A DNA stretch of 33,079 nt. Source: an uncultured Solirubrobacterales bacterium (lineage in GTDB: Bacteria > Actinomycetota > Thermoleophilia > Solirubrobacterales > 70-9). The stretch is from positions 1 through 33,079 of the forward strand of contig CAITDZ010000053.1 in the NCBI GenBank assembly GCA_903891285.1, given 5' to 3'. Below are positions 20,056-32,387 of this stretch, in pieces. A model generated the notes under the pieces. The model was not told where the DNA came from, ran no database searches, and worked only from the letters and a program-made list of their open reading frames with translations. Made by a program: the position numbers and the translations under genes. Numbering within the stretch: the stretch's first letter is position 1; each line of letters opens with the position of its first letter.

Positions 20056-21428
20056 CCAAGCTCGCCCGGGCGATCAAGGATCACACCAGGGACTTCGTCG
20101 CGGTCTCGCTGATGATCCTGCTGGCGATCGTGACCCTGCTGGTCATCCTCGCCAACCAGAAGGCCGCGCTGCCCGGATGGATCCCGGGCCTCGGCCAGGA
20201 GTTCTACTCGATCAACGCCGAATTCGAGACGGCCCAGGCAATCACTCCCGGTCAGGGCCAGGCCGCGGTGATCTCGGGAATCAACGTCGGCAAGGTCGGT
20301 GCCGCCGAGCTCGAGAATGGCGTGGCCAAGGTCCGGCTCGACATCGAGCCCCGTTACCGCGAGCTGCTCCATCAGGACGCCGAATTCCTCCTCCGACCGA
20401 AGACCGGCCTGAACGACATGGTTGTCGAGATCGATCCCGGCACCACCGGGCCGCCCCCCGAGGAGGGGTCGACCCTTCCGCTCGCCCAGGGCCTCTCGAA
20501 CGTCCAGCTGGACCAATTCTGGGCCAGCCTCGACAGGGAGACTCAGGACTACCTCGTCCTGCTGCTGAACGGTGCCGGCATCGGCCTCGACGGCAAGGGA
20601 CCTGAGCTCTCCCAGGCCCTGAGGCGGTTCGGACCCTTTGCGACCTACACGGCCCGGATAAACGGCCTGTTGGAGAAGCGGCGAAACAACATCTCCGGGG
20701 GAGTTCGGGCCCTCAGCCTCCTGGCCACCGAGCTGGGCAACAACGACACCGCAGTCAGGGACTTCGTCACCAACTCGAAGAACAACCTCCAGGCTTGGGC
20801 CGATGAGGAGGCCTCGCTGCGCGAAGCCCTGACCGAGTTCCCGTCGACCCTGGTCCAGGCCCGTCGCGGCCTCGCTTCGTCCAACCGGCTCTCCCTGGTG
20901 ATCCGACCGACCCTGCTCGACCTGATCCCTGGAGCGAAACGCCTCAAGGACGGCCTGATCGCCCTGGAAGACCTGGCCGGGGACGTAACCGTCCCGATCC
21001 GTGACGACATCCGGCCCTTCGCCCGGAACTCGCAACCGTTCTTCAAGGCCCTTGCCAAGACCAACAACGCGGCCCAGTTCACCGCACCCGCAACCCAGGG
21101 CTTCTACACCCAGCTGAATCGGCTGTTCAACTTCCTCGCCCACAACCCGTCAGGCGACACCCAGGAAGGCTTCCTGTTCTGGGCTCCCTGGCTGGCCCAC
21201 AACCTGAATTCCTCGATCAACGCCCAGGACGCAGGAGGTCCGGTCCGGCGCGGGATCAGCACCATCTCCTGCAACACGGCCCAGCAGGCGGCCGGAGTTG
21301 CCTGGAGTTCGCTCACCCAACAGGGGATACCCCAGCTCTACACCGCCTACCAGCTGGCCCAGCTCCCGCCCCCGACCAATCCCGTAGATGGCGGCATCTG
21401 CCCCAACGTCCCCCCGGAGAGCCCGTGA
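20052..21428 (+). CDS. MCE/MlaD family protein 5 of 6 (MceE position)
   Basis: 458-aa MCE protein. It has a membrane helix at about 14-35 (DFVAVSLMILLAIVTLLVIL), an MCE domain at about 51-130 with QAAVISGINVGKVGAAEL and GLNDMVVEIDPG, then a helical region and a tail with two cysteines (STISCNTAQQ and GGICPNVPPESP). In mycobacteria the MceE subunit is usually a lipoprotein; here I see no lipobox, only an uncleaved-type anchor. The 4-nt overlap with the next gene is GTGA, so the last gene starts with GTG. Confidence 0.88.
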   Translation: MTKLARAIKDHTRDFVAVSLMILLAIVTLLVILANQKAALPGWIPGLGQEFYSINAEFETAQAITPGQGQAAVISGINVGKVGAAELENGVAKVRLDIEPRYRELLHQDAEFLLRPKTGLNDMVVEIDPGTTGPPPEEGSTLPLAQGLSNVQLDQFWASLDRETQDYLVLLLNGAGIGLDGKGPELSQALRRFGPFATYTARINGLLEKRRNNISGGVRALSLLATELGNNDTAVRDFVTNSKNNLQAWADEEASLREALTEFPSTLVQARRGLASSNRLSLVIRPTLLDLIPGAKRLKDGLIALEDLAGDVTVPIRDDIRPFARNSQPFFKALAKTNNAAQFTAPATQGFYTQLNRLFNFLAHNPSGDTQEGFLFWAPWLAHNLNSSINAQDAGGPVRRGISTISCNTAQQAAGVAWSSLTQQGIPQLYTAYQLAQLPPPTNPVDGGICPNVPPESP

Positions 21429-23002
21429 ACAAGCAGGCACCTTCAGCAGGACAGCTGATCACGGTCGCGGGGTTCGCCCTGGCCTGCTTCGCCCTCCTGC
21501 TCTTCGTCTGGACGGCCTTCGGCGGCCCCACCCCGCTGGCTGCCGAGGGATACAAGCTGAAGATGCCCCTCGTCCAGATAAACCAGCTGGCCGAACAGTC
21601 CCAGGTCAAGATCTCGGGCCTCGAGGTCGGCCGGGTGAGTGACGTGCGCCTCGGTGAGGAGGACGACCGCGACAGGGCGATCGTCACCCTCGAGATCGAG
21701 CCCGAGTACGCACCGCTGCCGAAGGACACCCGGGCAATCTTGAGGGCCAAGTCCCTGATCGGCGAGGCCTATGTCGAGCTAGCGCCTGGCAATCGGTCCT
21801 CGGGGATGCTCGAAGACGGAAGCTCCCTGCCGCCGGCTCAGGTAGCCCGCTCGGTCCAGCTCGACGAGATCTTCCGGACTTACGACGAGGAGACGAGGGC
21901 AGCCTTCATGCAGGGCGCGATCGACAATGCGATTGCCAGCCGGGGTAGGGGGGTATCGCTCAACCAGGCGCTAGGGGTGCTCCCGGGGACTCTGGTCCAG
22001 CTCGACGACGTACTCAACATCCTCAACTCACAGGAAGAAGACGTGACCCGCCTGATCCGGAACACCGGGGTCGTCTTCGATGCCCTGAGCCGTCGCCAGG
22101 GCCAGCTGTCGGGCCTGATCCGGGGAACCAACACCGTCTTCCGCACCACCGCCGACCGAAACGTCGAGCTGGCCGAGTTCTTCCGCGCATTCCCGACCTT
22201 CCTCCGTGAATCGCGGCTGACCCAGGAGAGGCTGGGCGACTTCAGCGAGGCAAATACACCCCGGGTGGAGAAGATGGTCCCGGTCGCAAAGCAGCTGTCG
22301 CCAACCTTCAAGGCAGCCAAGCGGCTCGCTCCCGAAAGCCTCCGCTTCTATACGAACACCAGACCGGTCATCAACAAGGCACCGAGGGCCTTTCCCTCGC
22401 TCCGCGGCTTCCTCGACAACGAGGCGCCGAGGCTGCTCGCTAGGCTGCCCGATTTCCTCAAGGAGTTCACCCCGTTGATCAGCGCCGCCTCCTACTACCG
22501 GCGTGAGCTGGCCGCCTTCCTCGGCAACGCCGCCGCGGCAACGAATGCCCGCTCCCCCTATGCGAGCAACTTCACCGGGGTTCGCTACATCCGCGCCGGG
22601 GTGACCCTTGGTCCCGAGTCGACCACTGCCTTCGGCCCGCAGAGGCTGACCACCAATCGTTCGAACCCCTATCCGGCGGCCGGATCGAGCCTCGGCTTCG
22701 CGAGTGGGGGCCTCCAGGTCTTCGATTCGACCAACTGCTCGGCAGGACTCAACGCGACGATGCCCGAATGGAGCGCCCTCACCCCCGCCGAACAGGCCCA
22801 GTACACGAACAACCTGCGTTACCCGCTCACCCCGACCGAGGTGGAGGAGCAGTACGACAACGTGATCACCTTCGGATTCGCTGGAGCGCTGCAGACCAAC
22901 GACGTTCCGGCCCCGGCCTGTCTCCAGCAGGCCCCGTTCACGCCGCTCGGTGATCCCTCCAGGCCGGCCACCCAGTACCAGCACGTCTACCGCCAACCCT
23001 GA
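21425..23002 (+). CDS. MCE/MlaD family protein 6 of 6 (MceF position)
   Basis: 525-aa MCE protein. It has a membrane helix at about 10-32 (LITVAGFALACFALLLFVW), an MCE domain at about 42-123 with SQVKISGLEVGRVSDVRLGE and SLIGEAYVELAPGN, a helical region (LVQLDDVLNILNSQEEDV), then a C-terminal part with cysteines at STNCSAGLN and PAPACLQQAPF. Start is the GTG of a GTGA overlap. It is the last gene of the overlapping run. No YrbE/MlaE permease, MlaF ATPase or Mas-type accessory gene follows; the next gene has its own leader. Confidence 0.88.
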   Translation: MNKQAPSAGQLITVAGFALACFALLLFVWTAFGGPTPLAAEGYKLKMPLVQINQLAEQSQVKISGLEVGRVSDVRLGEEDDRDRAIVTLEIEPEYAPLPKDTRAILRAKSLIGEAYVELAPGNRSSGMLEDGSSLPPAQVARSVQLDEIFRTYDEETRAAFMQGAIDNAIASRGRGVSLNQALGVLPGTLVQLDDVLNILNSQEEDVTRLIRNTGVVFDALSRRQGQLSGLIRGTNTVFRTTADRNVELAEFFRAFPTFLRESRLTQERLGDFSEANTPRVEKMVPVAKQLSPTFKAAKRLAPESLRFYTNTRPVINKAPRAFPSLRGFLDNEAPRLLARLPDFLKEFTPLISAASYYRRELAAFLGNAAAATNARSPYASNFTGVRYIRAGVTLGPESTTAFGPQRLTTNRSNPYPAAGSSLGFASGGLQVFDSTNCSAGLNATMPEWSALTPAEQAQYTNNLRYPLTPTEVEEQYDNVITFGFAGALQTNDVPAPACLQQAPFTPLGDPSRPATQYQHVYRQP

Positions 23003-25177: not shown

Positions 25178-25297
25178 GCGCAACGGGGCGCCGCCGCGGA
25201 CCGGGCGAAATCGCCCTCGCGTCGGCTGCCCCCGAGCGCTTCCGTCCTTGCCCCGGGACTACTGTCCCGGGGTGGCATTTCCCGTGACGGAAGGACG
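25178..25297 (+). promoter_or_regulatory. highly structured 5' leader of the APC/RCK operon (candidate riboregulator)
   Basis: Three nested or adjacent foldings are visible. (a) One long imperfect stem-loop at 25178-25239: GCGC-CGGGG pairs with CCCCG-GCGC, then GCCG/CGGC, CGCG/CGCG and an apical GGGCG/CGCCC. (b) A perfect 9-bp hairpin CCCCGGGAC/GTCCCGGGG (25251-25272) with TACT loop. (c) Two mutually exclusive stems that cover the ribosome site: 25239-25246 with 25286-25293 (8 bp), or 25243-25249 with 25291-25297 (7 bp). Both would hide AAGGA in front of the GTG at 25300. There is no T-tract, so control of translation is more likely than termination. It does not show the intact conserved blocks of the ydaO c-di-AMP riboswitch. 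Confidence 0.5.
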
Positions 25298-25299
25298 TC

Positions 25300-27165
25300 G
25301 TGGCTAGGCGGGTCCCCAGGGACCAGGGTCTGAGGCGGATCCTCGGAGCCTCGGCGCTCTACTCGGCCGCCTACGGCAACGTCGGGTCGTCGATCTACTA
25401 CGCCCTGGGGGTCACGGCGGCATTCGCCCTCGGCCTCACCCCGGTCGCCTTCCTGATCGCCGGGCTGATCTTCATCTGCACGGCGGCGACCTACGCCGAG
25501 GGGACCGTGATGTATCCGGAGGCCGGCGGGTCATCGAGCTTCGCCCGCCACGCCTTCAACGAGCTCGTCAGCTTCATCGCTGCCTGGGGCCAGATGCTGA
25601 ACTACACGATCACGGCTGCGATCTCGGCCTACTTCGTGCCCCACTACCTGGCCGTCTTCTGGGCCCCACTCGGAAGCGCACCCGGGGACATCATCGCCGG
25701 CGCCGTGGTGATCCTCGCCCTCGCAGCGCTCAACATCAGGGGGGCGGAGGAATCGACCAGGTTCAACCTCGTCCTGACGATCCTCGATATCGCGACCCAG
25801 GTCGTCCTGGTCGCGATCGGCGTCTTCCTCGTCCTGAGTCCCGAGGTCCTGGTCTCGAACGTCCAGCTCGGAATTGCCCCGACCTGGCCCGACTTCGCCC
25901 TTGGTATCGCGGTCGGGATGATCGCCTACACCGGGATCGAGACGATCTCGAACATGTCCGAGGAGGCTAGGGACGCCGCCCGGACCGTGCCCCAGGGGGT
26001 GATCCTCGTGGTGATTACGGTCCTCGCGCTCTATGCCTTCATCCCGATCGTCGCCCTCTCGGCGATGCCGGTGGTCCAGCTTCCCGACGGATCATTCGTG
26101 ACCGAGCTGGGGACCACCTACGCCGATGATCCGATCCTGGGGATCGTCGAGAACCTGGGGGTTTCCGGTGCCCTGAAGGAGGCATTGAAGATCTACGTGG
26201 GCCTGCTGGCCGCGGTGATCCTCCTGATCGCGACCAATGCCGGGATGATCGGGGTCTCGCGCCTCAGCTACTCGATGGGCCAGCACCGCCAGCTGCCCGA
26301 GGCGATCCGACGGGTGCACCCCCGCTACCGGACGCCCTACATCGCAATCGCCTTCTTTGCCGTCGCGGCGATCGTGACGATCCTTCCCGGCCGGGCGGAG
26401 TTCCTGGCGACCCTCTACTCGTTCGGCGCGATGCTTTCCTTCACGATCGCCCATGCAGCGGTGATCCGGATGAGGAAGACCGAACCGGATGCCGTGCGGG
26501 AGTGGATGCCGCCGCTCAACTTCCGGTTCAGGGGGACGCTCCTGCCATTGACCGCGATCGTCGGGGGTCTGGGCACGTTCCTCGCCTGGATAGTCGTGAT
26601 GGCCCTCAATCCCGTGACCCTGCTGGTCGGAAGCCTCTGGATGGCGATCGGGATCGTCGTCTACCTGCTCTATCGCCGCTACCAGAACCTTCCGCTCAGG
26701 GAAACGGTGACCGTCGTCATGCCGGAGCCGCTCGGCGTGGAGGAGATCGAATACCGAAGCGTGGTGGTCGGCCTGCGGCCCGGTGAGGTCCTATCGGACG
26801 AGCTGATCACGACGGCCCTCGCACTCACCTCCCAGACCCGACGGGCGATCCACGTGGCCCCACTGCTCGCCGTCCCGTCCGACCTGCCGCTCGATGCCGA
26901 CCTCACCGAGGCCGAGGAGAAAGCCCAGAACGAGATCGAGAGGGGGAGGATCGAGGCCGGTCTCAGAGTGACCGGCAAGGTCGTGCGGGTCCGGGAAGGG
27001 GAGGAGGGGTATTCGCTCGATCGGCTGGCCCGTTCGCTCGATGCCGAGGCGGTGATCGTCGACCTGCCGACCAGCCACGGCGCCCCGGTCTACGACCGCG
27101 TCCTCCGAACCCTCCTCGCCAAGCGACCCTGCCGGGTGATCGTGGTTTCCGGGGAGGCAAAGTGA
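25300..27165 (+). CDS. APC-family transporter with C-terminal UspA-like domain (1)
   Basis: 621-aa protein. Residues 1-465 form an APC-superfamily transporter with about 12 membrane helices. Helix 1 carries ALYSAAYGNVGSSIYYALGV, and the conserved loop YPEAGGSSSFARHAFNEL follows helix 2. Residues about 480-621 form a cytosolic UspA-like domain (EYRSVVVGLRPGE ... AEAVIVDLPTSHGAPVYDRV ... CRVIVVSG) whose nucleotide-binding glycines are degenerate. The same architecture, APC plus cytosolic sensor, is seen in KimA/KUP-type potassium uptake proteins. Together with the two TrkA proteins downstream this suggests a cation symporter, although amino-acid transport cannot be excluded. GTG start 25300 has GGAAGGA 5 nt upstream, within a folded leader. 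The 3' end overlaps the next gene by 4 nt. Confidence 0.85.
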   Translation: MARRVPRDQGLRRILGASALYSAAYGNVGSSIYYALGVTAAFALGLTPVAFLIAGLIFICTAATYAEGTVMYPEAGGSSSFARHAFNELVSFIAAWGQMLNYTITAAISAYFVPHYLAVFWAPLGSAPGDIIAGAVVILALAALNIRGAEESTRFNLVLTILDIATQVVLVAIGVFLVLSPEVLVSNVQLGIAPTWPDFALGIAVGMIAYTGIETISNMSEEARDAARTVPQGVILVVITVLALYAFIPIVALSAMPVVQLPDGSFVTELGTTYADDPILGIVENLGVSGALKEALKIYVGLLAAVILLIATNAGMIGVSRLSYSMGQHRQLPEAIRRVHPRYRTPYIAIAFFAVAAIVTILPGRAEFLATLYSFGAMLSFTIAHAAVIRMRKTEPDAVREWMPPLNFRFRGTLLPLTAIVGGLGTFLAWIVVMALNPVTLLVGSLWMAIGIVVYLLYRRYQNLPLRETVTVVMPEPLGVEEIEYRSVVVGLRPGEVLSDELITTALALTSQTRRAIHVAPLLAVPSDLPLDADLTEAEEKAQNEIERGRIEAGLRVTGKVVRVREGEEGYSLDRLARSLDAEAVIVDLPTSHGAPVYDRVLRTLLAKRPCRVIVVSGEAK

Positions 27166-27359
27166 ACCCGGCCACCGGGCACGACCGGGCGGTCCGGGTC
27201 CTGACCATCGTCCAGGTCGGACTGGGGGTGGCGATCGTCGCCGTGACCCTGGTCCGCGGAGGTGGACCGCTCTCGTTGGGCGTGATCATCGGCCTCGCAC
27301 TGATCGCAGTCGGCTTCGCCCGGTGGCGTCTCCAGGAGCGGATCGGAGGGGACCGGTGA
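27162..27359 (+). CDS. small two-helix membrane protein between the APC genes
   Basis: 65-aa protein with two predicted membrane helices (about 12-31 VLTIVQVGLGVAIVAVTLV and 37-53 LSLGVIIGLALIAVGFA), a short loop RGGGP and a basic C terminus RWRLQERIGGDR. GTG starts at both ends: its own GTG overlaps the upstream TGA by 4 nt and its TGA overlaps the downstream GTG by 4 nt. A GGGGAGG site precedes it. Such strict coupling supports a real subunit, perhaps a small accessory like those of Kdp or Trk complexes. I know of no named family. Confidence 0.7.
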   Translation: MNPATGHDRAVRVLTIVQVGLGVAIVAVTLVRGGGPLSLGVIIGLALIAVGFARWRLQERIGGDR

Positions 27360-29287
27360 ACGGCGAGGACAGGCGGCGCCCGAGCGCGGCGATCTGGGTC
27401 GTAGCGATCACCTATGCGGCGATCGGCTCCTCGATCTACTTCGCGCTCGGGGTGATAGCCAGGGACGGCCTCGGCCTGACTCCGGCGATCCTCCTGGTCG
27501 CGGGCCTGCTCTTCTTCCTCACCCTCTTTGCCTTCCTCGAGGGTGCGACGATGCTCGGAGAGCGCGGTGGTTCGTCCAGCCTCGTACGAGCGGCCTTCGG
27601 GGAGTTCCTCGCTTTCGTCGCCGGCTGGGTCGTCCTGCTCGACTTCGTCGTGGTGATTTCCCTCGCCGTGCTCTCGATACCGCAGTATCTCGAGCCCTAT
27701 GTCGGCCAGGTAGAGGGATCGGCGTGGGAGGTCGTCCTGCTCGGCCTGGTCGTCGGCTACATCGTCGTCATGAACCTGATCGACCTGACCGGCAGGAGGA
27801 GACCCCGGTTCCTGATCGCCCTCGCGCTCGGCGACCTGGTGATCCAGGGCCTGGTCGTCGTGATCGGGCTACTCGTCTTCCTCGAGCCCGGCGCCCTGAC
27901 TGCGAGCCTGGACCTGGGGAGTGGCTCCCCGGGCGTCGAGGATGCCCTCTACGCCGCGGTTATCGCGCTGGTCGCGTACGCAGGCCTCGAGGCAGTCAGC
28001 GACCTGGTTCCCGAGCTGGACATCTCTCCGGAGCGGGTCGGGAAACTGGTCGGTCGCTCGGCCTGGACGATTCCACTGCTGTTCGCGGCGATCGCCGTGG
28101 TCGCACTGCTGGCCCTGCCGGTGGTCGAGGGGCCCGGGGGACCCTCGACCGAACTCGGCACGACTTTCCTGGGAGCCCCGATCCTCGGGGTCGTAGCGAG
28201 CTTCGAGCCGGGTTGGCTGGCCGACTTCATGAGGTACGTGGTTGGCCTGGTCGCTGCCCTGACCCTCCTCTGGGCAGCCAATACCGGCCTGCTCGCGCTT
28301 TCCCGCCACACGTTCTCGCTGGCGGTGCATCGGCAGATACCGATCAGGGTCGGGGTTCTCGGCAAGCGGTTCGAGACGCCGTACCGGGTCCTGATCATGG
28401 CGGGCGTGGCGGTCTTCCTGCTCGCCCTCTTCGGCGACGTCGATGTCCTCGCCGGGCTGTTTGCCTTCGGTGCGACCCTGGCGATCACCCTCGCCCACCT
28501 CGCCCTGATCCGCCTGAGGATCACCCGTCCCGATGCCGAGCGGCCGTTCACCGCACCGCTTTCGATCCCGTTCCGGGGCGGCCGCATCCCACTTACCTCG
28601 GTTGCCGGGGCGCTGCTCGGGGGGCTTGCCTTCATCTCCGTCCTGGTGATCCACGACGAGGCCCGCTGGGTCGGTGCGGTCTGGCTGGTGGTCGGTCTCG
28701 CTGGCTATGCCATCTACAGGCTGGTTGTCCAGGGTGTGGGCCTGAACAAGCCGATCGAGCTCGACACCCGGACCCTGACCCGCCCCGAGCCCCGGGCGAG
28801 CCTCGGGCGGATCCTGGTGCCGCTCTTCGGAACGGCCCTGGACCAGGACATCGTCAGTACGGCCGGCCTGATGGCGGCCGAGGAGGAGCCGGAGATGGGC
28901 ATCGAGGGTGCGAAGGTGATCCTGCTCTACACGACCGAGGTGCCGATGAACCTGGCCCTGGAAGATCCGGTCGAGGGCGAGGAGGAACGCCTGGAGGTGC
29001 TGGGGGAGAGGGCACGGGCTATCGCCGAGGAGTACGAGGGCGTTTCCGTCGAGGTCGAGTCGGTCCGCTGCAGGGAGGCTGGCGAGGCGATAGTCGAGGC
29101 TGCCGGGCGACTACAGGTCGATGCGGTGGTGATGGGGGCCGAACCGCCTACCGGAATCCAGGGTGGGCCGCAGCTCGGGGGCCTGGGGGAGGCCCGCTAT
29201 GAGGAGGTCGGTCCGGTCACCCTCTATGTCCTCAGCCACGCGACCGCTCCCGTGCTCGTTACGGCGCCGCCGACCGACCAGGACTAG
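27356..29287 (+). CDS. APC-family transporter with C-terminal UspA-like domain (2)
   Basis: 643-aa paralogue of the transporter at 25300. Its APC part (about 10-460) keeps the helix 1 pattern AITYAAIGSSIYFALGVIAR and the post-helix-2 loop LGERGGSSSLVRAAFGEFL. Its C-terminal UspA domain (about 480-640) is better preserved than that of the first copy, starting SLGRILVPLFGTALDQDIV and including VDAVVMGAEPPTG and APVLVTAPP. Two complete, diverged copies in one operon suggest a hetero-oligomeric transporter. Start: GTG 27356 in a GTGA overlap. The TAG stop overlaps a TAGACT hexamer that may start a separate transcript for the TrkA pair. Confidence 0.85.
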   Translation: MNGEDRRRPSAAIWVVAITYAAIGSSIYFALGVIARDGLGLTPAILLVAGLLFFLTLFAFLEGATMLGERGGSSSLVRAAFGEFLAFVAGWVVLLDFVVVISLAVLSIPQYLEPYVGQVEGSAWEVVLLGLVVGYIVVMNLIDLTGRRRPRFLIALALGDLVIQGLVVVIGLLVFLEPGALTASLDLGSGSPGVEDALYAAVIALVAYAGLEAVSDLVPELDISPERVGKLVGRSAWTIPLLFAAIAVVALLALPVVEGPGGPSTELGTTFLGAPILGVVASFEPGWLADFMRYVVGLVAALTLLWAANTGLLALSRHTFSLAVHRQIPIRVGVLGKRFETPYRVLIMAGVAVFLLALFGDVDVLAGLFAFGATLAITLAHLALIRLRITRPDAERPFTAPLSIPFRGGRIPLTSVAGALLGGLAFISVLVIHDEARWVGAVWLVVGLAGYAIYRLVVQGVGLNKPIELDTRTLTRPEPRASLGRILVPLFGTALDQDIVSTAGLMAAEEEPEMGIEGAKVILLYTTEVPMNLALEDPVEGEEERLEVLGERARAIAEEYEGVSVEVESVRCREAGEAIVEAAGRLQVDAVVMGAEPPTGIQGGPQLGGLGEARYEEVGPVTLYVLSHATAPVLVTAPPTDQD

Positions 29288-29290
29288 ACT
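29285..29290 (+). promoter_or_regulatory. putative -10 hexamer for leaderless trkA-like transcript
   Basis: TAGACT fits TANNNT, with a 7-nt spacer to the ATG at 29298 and no Shine-Dalgarno. It overlaps the stop codon of the second APC gene and would permit TrkA subunits to be made independently of the transporters. Confidence 0.4.
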
Positions 29291-29297
29291 CGCGCAA

Positions 29298-29741
29298 ATG
29301 TTCATTCTGATCGTGGGCTGCGGCAGGACTGGGTCCCGCCTCGGGCGCTTCCTGATTGACCAGGAGGGAAACACCGTCTCGGTCATGGACCGTGATCCCG
29401 AGGCCCACGCCAGGCTCGAGGTCGGCCTGGACCAGCCCTGGGAGGAACTCGGGGGAAGGTTCACGGTCGGGGCAGCGCTCGAGACCGACGCACTCGAACT
29501 CGCCGGCATCGAGGAAGCAGATGCCTTCGTCGCAGCGACCAACGGCGACAACACGAACATCGTCATCTCCCAGATCGCCAGGGAGCGGTACGGGGTGGAC
29601 AAGGTGGTCGCCCGGATCATGGATCCGGCCCGGGCCAGGTGGTACCGGGATCGGGGTCTGGAGATCGTCTGTCCGACCTCGATCTCGGCTGGACTCCTCG
29701 GCGAGGCGCTGGGCTACCCGGATGCGCTGGGTGAGGCCTGA
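29298..29741 (+). CDS. TrkA-N (RCK) domain protein lacking RCK_C
   Basis: 147-aa Rossmann-fold RCK_N protein. The dinucleotide motif is GCGRTGS (7-13) with Asp31 at the end of strand 2 (VMDRD), as in NAD-binding members. AFVAATNGDNTNIVISQIAR and VVARIMDPARA are typical TrkA-N blocks. It stops right after the first domain, so it has no RCK_C (TrkA-C) ligand domain. It should form mixed rings with the following two-domain partner on the cytosolic face of a channel or transporter. Start ATG 29298. The next gene starts on the last base of its TGA. Confidence 0.88.
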   Translation: MFILIVGCGRTGSRLGRFLIDQEGNTVSVMDRDPEAHARLEVGLDQPWEELGGRFTVGAALETDALELAGIEEADAFVAATNGDNTNIVISQIARERYGVDKVVARIMDPARARWYRDRGLEIVCPTSISAGLLGEALGYPDALGEA

Positions 29742-30400
29742 TGTACCTGCTGGTGATCGGGGCCGGCAAGGTCGGCTCGAACCTCGCCCGGGAGCTGATC
29801 GACCAGGGGCACGAGGTGACCCTTGTCGAGAACTCCCGTAAGCGCTACCAGGCGATCGAGCCGATGTTCGAGCATCGGATCCAGCTGGGGGATGCCTCGG
29901 AGCTCTGGGTCCTCGAGCGGGCCGGGATCGAGCGGGCCGACATGGTGATCGCGGTAACCGGCGACGACGAGGACAACATCCTGATCTCCCAGGTGGCCAA
30001 GGAGAAGTACGGAGTCCCCCAGATCATCGCCCGGGTCAACAACCCCCGCAACAGGCAGCACTTCGACCTGCTGGGAATCTCTCCGGTCGTCTCCTCGACC
30101 AGCCTGATCCTCAGCTTCATCGAGCACGGGGTTCCCCAGAAGGGGCTGATCCGCCTGCTCGACCTCGGGAGCGAGGGGATCGAGATCATCGAGGTAAGGG
30201 TCGGGGAGGACTCCCCGGTCCGGGATACGGCCGTCCGTGACATCGACCTGCCCGAACGGACGCTCCTCATCTCGGTGCTCAGGGAGGGAGCCGGGTTCGT
30301 GCCAGAGCCCGATTCGGTGCTCGAAGAGGGCGATCGGCTGCTGATCGTGCTCGATCCCGGCCAGGAGGAGGCGGTCAAGGCCGCTCTCCGAACCGCTTGA
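29741..30400 (+). CDS. TrkA family potassium uptake regulatory protein (RCK_N + RCK_C)
   Basis: 219-aa TrkA/KtrA-type protein. RCK_N is at 1-130, with GAGKVGS (7-13), Glu30 closing strand 2, and TGDDEDNILISQVAKEKYG. RCK_C is at about 138-218 with EIIEVRVGEDSPVRDTAV and EEGDRLLIVLDPGQEEAV. The second domain can bind small ligands (c-di-AMP in several Gram-positives); binding here is untested. In mycobacteria a similar pair (CeoB/CeoC) lies beside an APC-type membrane protein. It overlaps the preceding gene by 1 nt and converges on a minus-strand gene with only 5 nt between, so no intrinsic terminator fits there. Confidence 0.9.
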   Translation: MYLLVIGAGKVGSNLARELIDQGHEVTLVENSRKRYQAIEPMFEHRIQLGDASELWVLERAGIERADMVIAVTGDDEDNILISQVAKEKYGVPQIIARVNNPRNRQHFDLLGISPVVSSTSLILSFIEHGVPQKGLIRLLDLGSEGIEIIEVRVGEDSPVRDTAVRDIDLPERTLLISVLREGAGFVPEPDSVLEEGDRLLIVLDPGQEEAVKAALRTA

Positions 30401-30925: not shown

Positions 30926-31594
30926 TCAGTTAGAGGGGATGCCGCCCGAGTTGCCCGTGTCAGGGACTTCGCAGCGCGCACCACAGTTCTCCAGCTGCCT
31001 GATTCCCTTCAGCATCAGCTTGAACTCGTCGTTTCGGCGACGGGTCAGGCCGGGAAGGGTGTAGCGATCGCCGCCGGAGATCACCCCGTCGTAGATCCTC
31101 ATGTCGCGGGCTGCTCCGAGGTAGTTCCCCTTTCGCATCTTGCCCGCGATGTTGGTGGTTCGGGTAAATCCATTCGACTTCTTGAAGTCCAGGTATCCAG
31201 GCCCCAGGTTGAAGGCAAACGAGGTGAGTGCGGTCATCATCGGCGGGGTCACCGGCACTCCTGCGATCCGCTGCTTGACCTCGGCCTCGTAGGAGACCAG
31301 GTCGAGGCGGAGCAGGCGCTTCGCCTCTTCTTCGGTCAGGCGCCCCGGCCTCTTCTGGCCCGGCACCCAGATCCGCTTCCAGTCGGACTTGTTGACGGGC
31401 CGGTAGGCGATCAGGTGGCCGTGGCCGATCGTCGCGTAGCCAACAGGGTCGTTGCAGGGTGTGAGGCATACCCCTTCGAACTCGGCGATGAAGTCGGCGG
31501 TCGCCTTGGTGACAGCGGAGGCGCCGGGCGCGAGGGAGAGCAGGAAGAGCGCAGCGGCCAGGGCCGTTGCGGCTGAGAGGGCGGTGCGACGCAT
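30926..31594 (-). CDS. secreted GH24 (T4-type) lysozyme
   Basis: 222-aa muramidase of glycoside hydrolase family 24. A signal peptide spans about 1-27 (LSAATALAAALFLLSLAPGASA). The catalytic triad has exactly the T4 lysozyme spacing: Glu40 in EFEG, Asp49 in PCNDP and Thr55 in GYATIGHGH (T4: Glu11, Asp20, Thr26). Further family marks are LTEEEAKRLLRLDL and MMTALTSFAFNLGPG, and a late RRRNDEFKLML. Cys43/Cys47 near the active site and a second pair near the C terminus (NCGARCEVPD) may stabilise the exported form. No phage genes surround it, so it looks like a host cell-wall enzyme. Start: ATG 31594, leaderless-type; an upstream in-frame ATG (31705) would read through the promoter and the end of DedA. 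Confidence 0.85.
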   Translation of the reverse strand: MRRTALSAATALAAALFLLSLAPGASAVTKATADFIAEFEGVCLTPCNDPVGYATIGHGHLIAYRPVNKSDWKRIWVPGQKRPGRLTEEEAKRLLRLDLVSYEAEVKQRIAGVPVTPPMMTALTSFAFNLGPGYLDFKKSNGFTRTTNIAGKMRKGNYLGAARDMRIYDGVISGGDRYTLPGLTRRRNDEFKLMLKGIRQLENCGARCEVPDTGNSGGIPSN

Positions 31595-31601
31595 TAGTGA
31601 A

Positions 31602-31607
31602 AGGTTA
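31602..31607 (-). promoter_or_regulatory. putative -10 hexamer for leaderless lysozyme gene
   Basis: TAACCT on the minus strand with a 7-nt spacer to ATG 31594, and no Shine-Dalgarno. This is the same hexamer as at 30901. Confidence 0.45.
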
Positions 31608-31629
31608 GGGAAGCGACAGGATTCACAGG

Positions 31630-31646
31630 AAAAAAACGGCGGGCCG
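31630..31646 (-). terminator. weak terminator-like element after dedA
   Basis: Read on the minus strand, a short CGGC/GCCG stem with a very small loop is followed by seven Ts (31636-31630). The stem is too short to be convincing, but the T-run is the longest in this GC-rich stretch and lies 15 nt past the dedA stop. Confidence 0.3.
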
Positions 31647-31661
31647 CAAGTTCCCTTGGCT

Positions 31662-32387
31662 TCAGCCCTTGCTCCGGTCTTGGTCGCTCCCCGCAGCCCC
31701 CTCACTGACCTCCACCTCGCCGGAGGATTCCCCGCCCGAGCTCCGACTTGCCCTGAACAGCTCGAAGAAGACGGGGAGGACCGAGATCAGGACGATCGCG
31801 ATCAGGATCGGCTCGATGTTGTCCTTGACGAACTGGATACCACCGAGGAAGTAGCCGAGAGCGGTCACCCCAACGCCCCAGAGGACCCCTCCGATCACGT
31901 TGTAGGTGACGAAGACCCGGTACTGCATCCTGGAGGTGCCGGCCATCACCGGCACGAAGGTCCGGACGATCGGCACGAACCGGGCCAGGACCACCGTCTT
32001 GGGTCCGTGCCTCTCGAAGAAGGCGGCAGAGCGGTCGACGTACTCACGCTTGAAGAACCGGCTGTCTGGCCGATCGAAGAGCGGGGTTCCGAACTTCCGG
32101 CCGATCGCATAACCGACCTGGTCTCCGGCGATCGCGGCGAGGGGAATGGTGACCAGCAGGACCCAGATGGGCGGCAGGACCCCGGAGGCGGAGAGCAGGC
32201 CCGCGGTGAAGAGGAGGGAGTCACCCGGCAGGAAGAATCCGACCAGCAGACCGGACTCGATGAAGACGATCGCCAGGATGCCGAGGGTTCCGAACGTCCT
32301 GATCAGGTTCTCGGGATCGAGCCACGAAGGGCCCAGGGCGATCGGGGTCGAGTGGGCCAGCCAGGCGAGGGCTTCGGAGGGGTCCAC
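31662..32387 (-). CDS. DedA family membrane protein
   Basis: 241-aa DedA/SNARE-associated (PF09335) membrane protein. Family motifs are FFLPGDSLLFTAG (51-63) with the re-entrant F-x-PG-D/E, GDQVGYAIGRKFG (88-100) and ARFVPIVRTFVPVMAG (135-150), which contains the essential arginines. There are several membrane helices and an acidic Ser/Gly/Glu tail after 215. DedA proteins act in membrane homeostasis; some are undecaprenyl-phosphate or phospholipid scramblases. Start: GTG 32387, 7 nt after TACCTT, no Shine-Dalgarno. It heads a minus-strand run with lysozyme and the four-helix protein. Confidence 0.92.
   Translation of the reverse strand: MDPSEALAWLAHSTPIALGPSWLDPENLIRTFGTLGILAIVFIESGLLVGFFLPGDSLLFTAGLLSASGVLPPIWVLLVTIPLAAIAGDQVGYAIGRKFGTPLFDRPDSRFFKREYVDRSAAFFERHGPKTVVLARFVPIVRTFVPVMAGTSRMQYRVFVTYNVIGGVLWGVGVTALGYFLGGIQFVKDNIEPILIAIVLISVLPVFFELFRASRSSGGESSGEVEVSEGAAGSDQDRSKG

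What the first reader, a model, noticed from the sequence alone, without database searches (positions are those of the whole stretch)
25178..30400. Two APC-UspA transporters, a two-helix peptide and a split RCK pair in one coupled operon: candidate cation uptake system
Five genes are joined by 1-4 nt overlaps or a 10-nt gap. Trk/Ktr systems pair RCK proteins with TrkH/KtrB; none is present here, and two full APC-superfamily transporters occupy the place. One RCK protein has only the NAD domain, the other also has RCK_C. Mycobacterial CeoB/CeoC lie beside an APC-like protein (from memory), so the association may be ancient in actinobacteria. The doubling of the transporter and the 65-aa subunit look unusual. 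Substrate K+ is inference.
Basis: partly seen in the sequence, partly recalled or inferred. Interest (0 to 1): 0.72.

Follow-up and report, generated by a model that had tools for sequence, protein, structure and literature searches.

The report
Likely potassium-uptake operon with paired transporters
Soil and water bacteria of the class Thermoleophilia carry a conserved five-gene set that probably imports potassium: two related membrane transporters and a tiny membrane peptide, controlled by a split version of the regulatory ring that works with the potassium importer KimA or the channel TrkH elsewhere.

Summary
The five-gene operon (25300-30400) is real and not confined to this genome. The order T1 - 2-TM peptide - T2 - RCK_N - RCK_N+C recurs in about 90 Thermoleophilia loci, including cultured Conexibacter, Patulibacter and Solirubrobacter; strong T1 homologues were found in 0 of 180 sampled Actinomycetota outside the class. 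The two RCK genes are orthologues of the CeoB/CeoC-type pair of other Actinobacteria. There the pair usually lies beside a true KimA K+/H+ symporter, not TrkH. So the APC pair here replaces KimA as neighbour of a potassium-type RCK pair.

T1 is not a KimA family member by sequence, but its pocket reads as KimA/KUP-like rather than amino-acid-like, and is nearly invariant in 109 homologues. T2 is a faster-evolving paralogue with a decayed pocket. The split RCK pair matches the Thermotoga TM1088A/B gating ring. Ten near-complete genomes with T1 lack TrkH/KtrB, KimA, Kdp and Kup; three of them also lack two-TM K+ channels.

Best reading: an RCK-regulated K+ (monovalent cation) importer, T1 transporting, T2 as partner, the peptide as accessory. 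Substrate, direction and complex formation are unproven. The essential KimA Asp36 is Asn in T1. c-di-AMP control is unlikely here.

The parts
25300..27165 (+). T1: 12-TM APC-superfamily transporter with C-terminal UspA-like domain; proposed transporting subunit
   Evidence: AlphaFold model pLDDT 80, top PDB match KimA 8b71 Z 40.9 over 515 residues, with amino-acid APCs within about 2 Z units over the TM part. Pocket nearly invariant in 109 homologues.
27162..27359 (+). 65-aa two-helix membrane peptide, GTGA-overlapping both neighbours
   Evidence: homologues in 46 of 51 T1-bearing class genomes and 1 of 38 others; stays with the RCK pair where T1 has moved away (L045, L049).
27356..29287 (+). 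T2: paralogue of T1 (APC + Usp) with a degenerate ion pocket; proposed non-transporting or regulatory partner
   Evidence: model best matches KimA 8b71 Z 40.5.
29298..29741 (+). RCK_N-only protein (147 aa), orthologue of the first (CeoB-type) gene of the actinobacterial RCK pair
   Evidence: best PDB match TM1088A, 143 aa, 1e-18; tree.
29741..30400 (+). RCK_N+RCK_C protein (219 aa), orthologue of the second (CeoC-type) gene
   Evidence: tree.

Best explanation
The operon encodes a potassium (monovalent cation) uptake system. T1 is the transporting subunit: a LeuT-fold APC carrier whose pocket resembles that of KimA/KUP carriers, probably driven by H+ through Glu214. T2 is a diverged paralogue that most likely pairs with T1, as two KimA chains pair, and has lost an intact pocket. 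The RCK_N and RCK_N+C proteins form a mixed nucleotide-binding gating ring like Thermotoga TM1088A4B4 that docks on the cytosolic face and sets activity by nucleotide (ATP/ADP or NAD(H)) status. The two-helix peptide is a small accessory subunit, tied genetically to the RCK pair. Shown here: gene order, conservation, orthology of the RCK pair, KimA as the usual neighbour elsewhere, pocket conservation, distribution of other K+ importers. Inferred: substrate, direction, coupling, T1-T2 pairing, ring formation and docking, peptide function.
For: (1) RCK orthology: {RCK_N, first gene} and {RCK_N+C, second gene} separate with SH-aLRT 100 in a 72-row tree. (2) Outside the class the pair usually lies beside KimA: 22 of 33 loci examined held a KimA, including named Nonomuraea gerenzanensis, where the two are divergent with a few bases between the open frames (L227); the mycobacterium-like copy matches KimA at 1.5e-109. 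A review lists S. venezuelae Vnz_27465 as KimA-like and Vnz_27460 as an RCK_C protein, consecutive locus tags (PMC10117811). (3) T1 pocket: Y25 G26 N27, S30-Y34, T105, S109, D163, T211, N218, Y373 are invariant in 109 sequences and E214 in 106, matching KimA Y43, T121, S125, T230, E233, N237, Y377 (roles from PMC6994465). Most other class APCs show GxGI in TM1, several have K in TM5, and GFD/GYD is common in TM6. (4) T1 and KimA are almost exclusive in 89 class genomes: both in 4, T1 only 47, KimA only 17, neither 21 (Fisher 8e-5, not corrected for descent). (5) Ten genomes at least 95% complete have T1 and none of TrkH/KtrB, KimA, KdpA, Kup; three of them also lack Ion_trans_2 channels. (6) RCK_N best matches TM1088A, part of a Thermotoga ring needed at low K+ (PMC4380455).
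Against: KimA Asp36, essential for K+ in KimA (PMC6994465), is Asn in all T1 and variable in T2; Asp117 is mostly Asn in T1. The tree puts T1/T2 far from KimA, and T1's nearest solved sequence relatives are amino-acid carriers (GkApcT 1e-23, KimA 1e-9). TM1 register against KimA is ambiguous. Nine of 12 genomes checked have K+ channel genes, and two near-complete genomes lack both T1 and all four importers, so an untested importer may exist. In some genomes T1 lies apart from the RCK pair. No known case of an RCK ring on an APC carrier was found.
Confidence: 0.62

Rival explanations
1. T1/T2 carry an amino acid, amine or compatible-solute precursor, and the RCK pair couples that transport to nucleotide, redox or osmotic state.
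For: Best sequence relatives in the PDB are CAT/LAT amino-acid carriers; Pfam and NCBIfam hits are amino-acid or ethanolamine permeases.
Against: TM1 GSS in place of GxG, D163 in place of the proton-coupling Lys, TGxE..N in TM6 and T/S in TM3, unlike the other class APCs checked; the RCK pair's usual neighbour elsewhere is KimA; RCK rings are known from K+ systems.
Confidence: 0.15
2. The system exports or exchanges cations (K+/H+ or Na+ efflux) rather than importing K+.
For: RCK proteins also gate KefC and KhtTU efflux systems; the carboxylate D163 in TM5 could serve antiport.
Against: KimA, the usual neighbour of the orthologous pair, is an importer; ten near-complete genomes with T1 lack the four importer families searched.
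Confidence: 0.12
3. T1 is a K+-Cl- or Na+-K+-Cl- type cotransporter, with N27 playing the part of the TM1 Asn of NKCC1.
For: NKCC1's K+ site uses TM1 Asn298-Ile299, a TM3 Tyr and a TM6 Thr (PMC7035313); N27-V28, Y102 and T211 are conserved in T1; weak K-Cl cotransporter model hit; NKCC1 and KCC structures are in the match list.
Against: NKCC1 pathways lack formal charges whereas T1 keeps E214 and D163; fold and sequence matches to CCCs are weaker than to KimA or CAT.
Confidence: 0.06
4. The adjacency is not functional: the RCK pair serves a TrkH encoded elsewhere or a K+ channel, and T1/T2 are independent carriers.
For: TrkH occurs in 22 of 51 T1-bearing class genomes; the close Thermotoga pair works with TrkH (PMC4380455); some genomes have T1 unlinked from the RCK pair.
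Against: No TrkH in any of six genomes of the window's family; tight gene coupling conserved over about 90 loci; TrkH is not enriched with T1.
Confidence: 0.05

Closest known systems
KimA (YdaO), B. subtilis K+/H+ symporter of the KUP family
   Same: 12-TM LeuT-fold core plus C-terminal Usp-like cytosolic domain; best full-length structural match; conserved T121, S125, T230, E233, N237, Y377 equivalents; occupies the same place beside the orthologous RCK pair in other Actinobacteria
   Different: Separate, distant clade; D36 replaced by Asn; two paralogues instead of one gene; small peptide added
CeoB/CeoC ('Trk') of Mycobacterium tuberculosis
   Different: Window RCK1 lacks RCK_C; neighbour is T1/T2 instead of a KimA orthologue
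TM1088A/TM1088B split TrkA gating ring, Thermotoga maritima
   Same: RCK_N-only protein (143 aa) plus RCK_N+C protein (218 aa) from overlapping genes; best PDB match of RCK1
   Different: Membrane partner there is TrkH (TM1089)
ApcT / GkApcT (CAT-type amino-acid transporters)
   Same: GkApcT is the closest solved sequence to T1; same fold
   Different: TM1 GxG, TM5 Lys; no UspA domain or RCK partner
KtrAB / TrkAH
   Same: RCK regulation of K+ entry
   Different: Pore is a TrkH/KtrB channel, absent here

Membership tests
KimA (KUP subfamily) | Sequence homology clearly closer to KimA than to other APCs | tested here: not met
   T1 vs KimA 1.4e-9 but vs GkApcT 1e-23; KimA forms a separate clade on a branch of 2.7
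KimA (KUP subfamily) | 12-TM LeuT fold plus cytosolic Usp-like domain, whole-chain structural match | tested here: met
   8b71_A Z 40.9, rmsd 10.8, 515 aligned (T1); Z 40.5, rmsd 10.9, 514 aligned (T2); the large rmsd probably reflects domain placement
KimA (KUP subfamily) | Essential K+ and H+ residues D36, Y43, T121, E233, Y377 | tested here: not met
   T1: Y, T, E, Y kept; D36 is Asn in 109 of 109; TM1 register not fully certain
KimA (KUP subfamily) | K+/H+ symport activity | not testable with these tools
   needs a transport assay
Trk/Ktr K+ system | RCK protein(s) with nucleotide-binding Rossmann fold | tested here: met
   TrkA_N in both, GCGRTG and GAGKVG motifs
Trk/Ktr K+ system | TrkH/KtrB pore subunit in the operon | tested here: not met
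Two-subunit (TM1088-type) split TrkA ring | RCK_N-only plus RCK_N+C proteins from overlapping genes | tested here: met
   1-nt overlap; TM1088A 1e-18, TM1088B 9.5e-27
Two-subunit (TM1088-type) split TrkA ring | A4B4 octamer | not testable with these tools
   no complex prediction or assay available
CeoB/CeoC-type actinobacterial RCK pair | Orthology by tree | tested here: met
Amino-acid APC (CAT/ApcT type) | TM1 GxG carboxylate-binding motif and TM5 coupling Lys | tested here: not met
   GSS and D163 in essentially all T1 (alignment)
c-di-AMP-regulated RCK_C proteins | (I/L)(I/L)x2DxRx5N(I/L)(I/L) signature | tested here: not met
   0 of 155 RCK_C-type proteins including P0005 (signature from PMC10117811)

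The most novel reading that the evidence does not exclude
An RCK gating ring directly controls a carrier, not a channel: in most Actinobacteria (CeoBC included) the carrier is KimA, and in Thermoleophilia it has been swapped for a distantly related APC heterodimer with one intact and one decayed K+ pocket plus a two-helix subunit. This would make 'Trk' of M. tuberculosis a KimA-RCK system.
Probability: 0.4. Interest if true: 0.8.

Novelty: new variant of a known kind. Interest (0 to 1): 0.6.

Why it matters
The M. tuberculosis 'Trk' system is described as two TrkA proteins (PMC13163235, PMC4553272); the passages read name no membrane subunit for it. The conserved neighbour suggests that a KimA-type carrier is that subunit in Actinobacteria, and that one class has exchanged it for another APC carrier. 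RCK rings are textbook regulators of channels; finding them with carriers in two separate lineages would widen how cells gate K+ uptake and is testable in ordinary laboratory strains.

Tried and rejected
Filing T1/T2 as KimA orthologues: rejected on sequence, tree and D36. Direct profile alignment T1-Kup gave nothing significant. Profile alignment T1-KimA placed TM1 differently (Y25 on Y43) from the motif reading (Kup YGDIGTSPLY vs T1 YGNVGSSIYY) and from the best structural alignment, whose first pair is residue 21 to KimA 30; the latter is preferred but not settled. c-di-AMP control: no signature, no DAC hit. A palindrome just upstream of T1 was looked for in relatives and is not conserved. 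TrkH co-occurrence with T1 showed no significant link. Named mycobacterial locus: none fetched, so Rv2690c itself was not tested. The one annotated Streptomyces plasmid copy of KimA opened (H1) sits among transposase genes without annotated RCK genes, so KimA also occurs alone. Literature search found no paper holding both ceoBC and KimA; open-access library only.
Full report
WHAT IS THERE. The five genes are confirmed on the + strand at 25300-27165 (T1), 27162-27359 (65-aa peptide), 27356-29287 (T2), 29298-29741 (RCK_N) and 29741-30400 (RCK_N+C), with junctions of 4-nt overlap, 4-nt overlap, 10-nt gap and 1-nt overlap. Pfam: T1 and T2 are AA_permease_2; T2 has Usp above cut-off and T1 below it; RCK1 has TrkA_N only; RCK2 has TrkA_N and TrkA_C. 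No TrkH was found in this MAG (1.75 Mb, 87% complete). Near relatives in named records are Solirubrobacterales (Thermoleophilia), one at 99% identity over T1.

IT IS A CONSERVED SYSTEM. RCK2 was used to pull loci from 198 phylum genomes, and T1 from 89 class genomes and from named genome contigs (482 relatives, 80 kept). Automatic gene ordering gives T1-(peptide)-T2-RCK_N-RCK_N+C in about 80 complete loci, plus about 15 that are cut by contig ends or lack a called RCK gene. Where the script missed the peptide in the first relatives, the raw translations show it (L040, L041, L044, L046). A second form, in two other families, has peptide - single T1-like transporter - RCK_N - RCK_N+C (L116-L123), and L124/L125 have two T1-like copies. 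In genus g12, T1 lies elsewhere and no T2 was seen, but peptide-RCK_N-RCK_N+C stay together (L045, L049). The peptide was found in 46 of 51 T1-bearing genomes and 1 of 38 others. Strong T1 homologues occurred in 10 of 18 class genomes and 0 of 180 other Actinomycetota of the phylum sample.

THE RCK PAIR. In a 72-row tree all RCK_N rows group with the first gene and all RCK_N+C rows with the second gene of the RCK pair of other Actinobacteria (SH-aLRT 100 for the split). The Thermoleophilia form has no RCK_C on the first protein. The best PDB match of RCK_N is TM1088A, 143 aa. TM1088A and TM1088B (218 aa), from overlapping Thermotoga genes, form an A4B4 ring that binds AMP and, with the TrkH protein TM1089, is required at low potassium (PMC4380455). 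The split pair is thus not new in itself.

THE NEIGHBOUR ELSEWHERE IS KimA. In the rest of the phylum the pair usually lies beside an APC protein; 22 of 33 loci examined held a KimA homologue, nearly all with KimA motifs such as SDALSSVAY, DYVLTVAVS and TGVEA (a few of the 33 are class loci or short contigs). The mycobacterium-like copy matches B. subtilis KimA at 1.5e-109. A named case is Nonomuraea gerenzanensis (L227), with KimA divergent from the RCK pair. A review lists S. venezuelae Vnz_27465 as KimA-like, Vnz_27460 as an RCK_C protein, and no TrkH or KtrB in that species (PMC10117811); that their consecutive tags mean adjacency is my reading. For M. [quoted passage not shown]). That Rv2690c beside them is the KimA orthologue is expected from this pattern and from memory of the locus, but was not tested on a named mycobacterial record.

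T1 AND T2. T1 and T2 are sister clades, distant from KimA; the single-transporter form groups with T1. AlphaFold models (mean pLDDT 80 and 78) best match KimA over the whole chain (Z 40.9 and 40.5). ApcT and CAT-type amino-acid carriers follow within about 2-3 Z units over the transmembrane part only, so fold alone does not give substrate. Pocket reading: in KimA the K+ and H+ residues are D36, Y43, T121, S125, T230, E233 and Y377 (PMC6994465). T1 has invariant Y34, T105, S109, T211, N218 and Y373, and E214 in 106 of 109, but Asn27 at the D36 position and mostly Asn at D117. The single-transporter form has Asp at D117. TM1 reads YGNVGSSIYY, close to the Kup motif YGDIGTSPLY and unlike the GxGIF of amino-acid APCs; the TM5 coupling Lys of GkApcT is Asp163. 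NKCC1, also of the APC superfamily, binds K+ with backbone atoms of a TM1 Asn-Ile pair (PMC7035313), so Asn is not incompatible with K+. The TM1 register is inferred from motif and structure; one profile alignment disagrees.

DIVISION OF LABOUR. Over 86 loci with both, T1 averages 58% identity to the window copy and T2 42%, T1 higher in all 86. Pocket positions are nearly fixed in T1 (entropy 0.13 vs 1.03 for its TM region) but not in T2 (1.25 vs 1.60) (the pocket list was chosen by me, partly from conserved columns, so only the contrast between T1 and T2 should be used). In T2 the TM1, T121 and S125 positions vary, while D96 (91 of 91) and E212 (88 of 91) are kept. I read T1 as transporter and T2 as partner; KimA is a homodimer, so a T1-T2 pair is the natural guess, not shown.

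POTASSIUM. In 89 class genomes T1 and KimA rarely coexist (4 both, 47 T1 only, 17 KimA only, 21 neither; Fisher 8e-5, shared descent not removed). No TrkH, KimA or KdpA was found in any of the six genomes of the window's family; two of them have Kup. Ten T1-bearing genomes of at least 95% completeness lack TrkH/KtrB, KimA, KdpA and Kup; three of these (G055, G132, G200) also lack Ion_trans_2 channels. Two near-complete genomes lack T1 and all four importers too, so unknown importers exist or were missed; absence in draft genomes is weak evidence one by one.

MECHANISM, SHOWN VS INFERRED. Shown: operon, conservation, orthology of the RCK pair, KimA as the usual neighbour, pocket conservation, distribution. 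Inferred: K+ substrate, uptake direction, H+ coupling by E214, T1-T2 pairing, A4B4 ring docking, the peptide's role. c-di-AMP control is not supported: no signature in 155 RCK_C-type proteins and no DAC domain in this incomplete genome.

VERDICT. A new variant of RCK-controlled potassium transport: known regulators, different carrier. It is of real interest mainly because it points to KimA-type carriers as partners of CeoBC-type RCK pairs, a point for which no paper was found in the library searched.

Noticed in passing
L139, L141, L143, L146, L148 (about 35-60 nt upstream of T1); weaker in L151, L152: A recurring CGTATATTCGG-like sequence upstream of T1 in relatives, possibly a promoter or operator; not seen in the window.
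   Followed up: no
window 25250-25275: Palindrome CCCCGGGACTACTGTCCCGGGG shortly before the T1 start; not conserved in relatives.
   Followed up: partly
L045, L049: In genus g12 a membrane pyrophosphatase-like gene lies just upstream of peptide-RCK_N-RCK_N+C, with T1 elsewhere in the genome.
   Followed up: no
L039, L152, L159: A second small-peptide-like frame lies upstream of T1 as well as the usual one between T1 and T2.
   Followed up: no
L124, L125: Tandem duplication of the single-transporter form, apparently a separate doubling from T1/T2.
   Followed up: partly
L176, L183, L191: Public MAG contigs titled Bifidobacterium breve carry Thermoleophilia-type T1 homologues; the labels look wrong.
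   Followed up: no
window 21425-23002: MlaD/Mce-type protein upstream, probably part of an mce operon.
   Followed up: no
window 30926-32387, minus strand: A PF00959 lysozyme-like gene and a VTT-domain gene follow the operon on the opposite strand.
   Followed up: no
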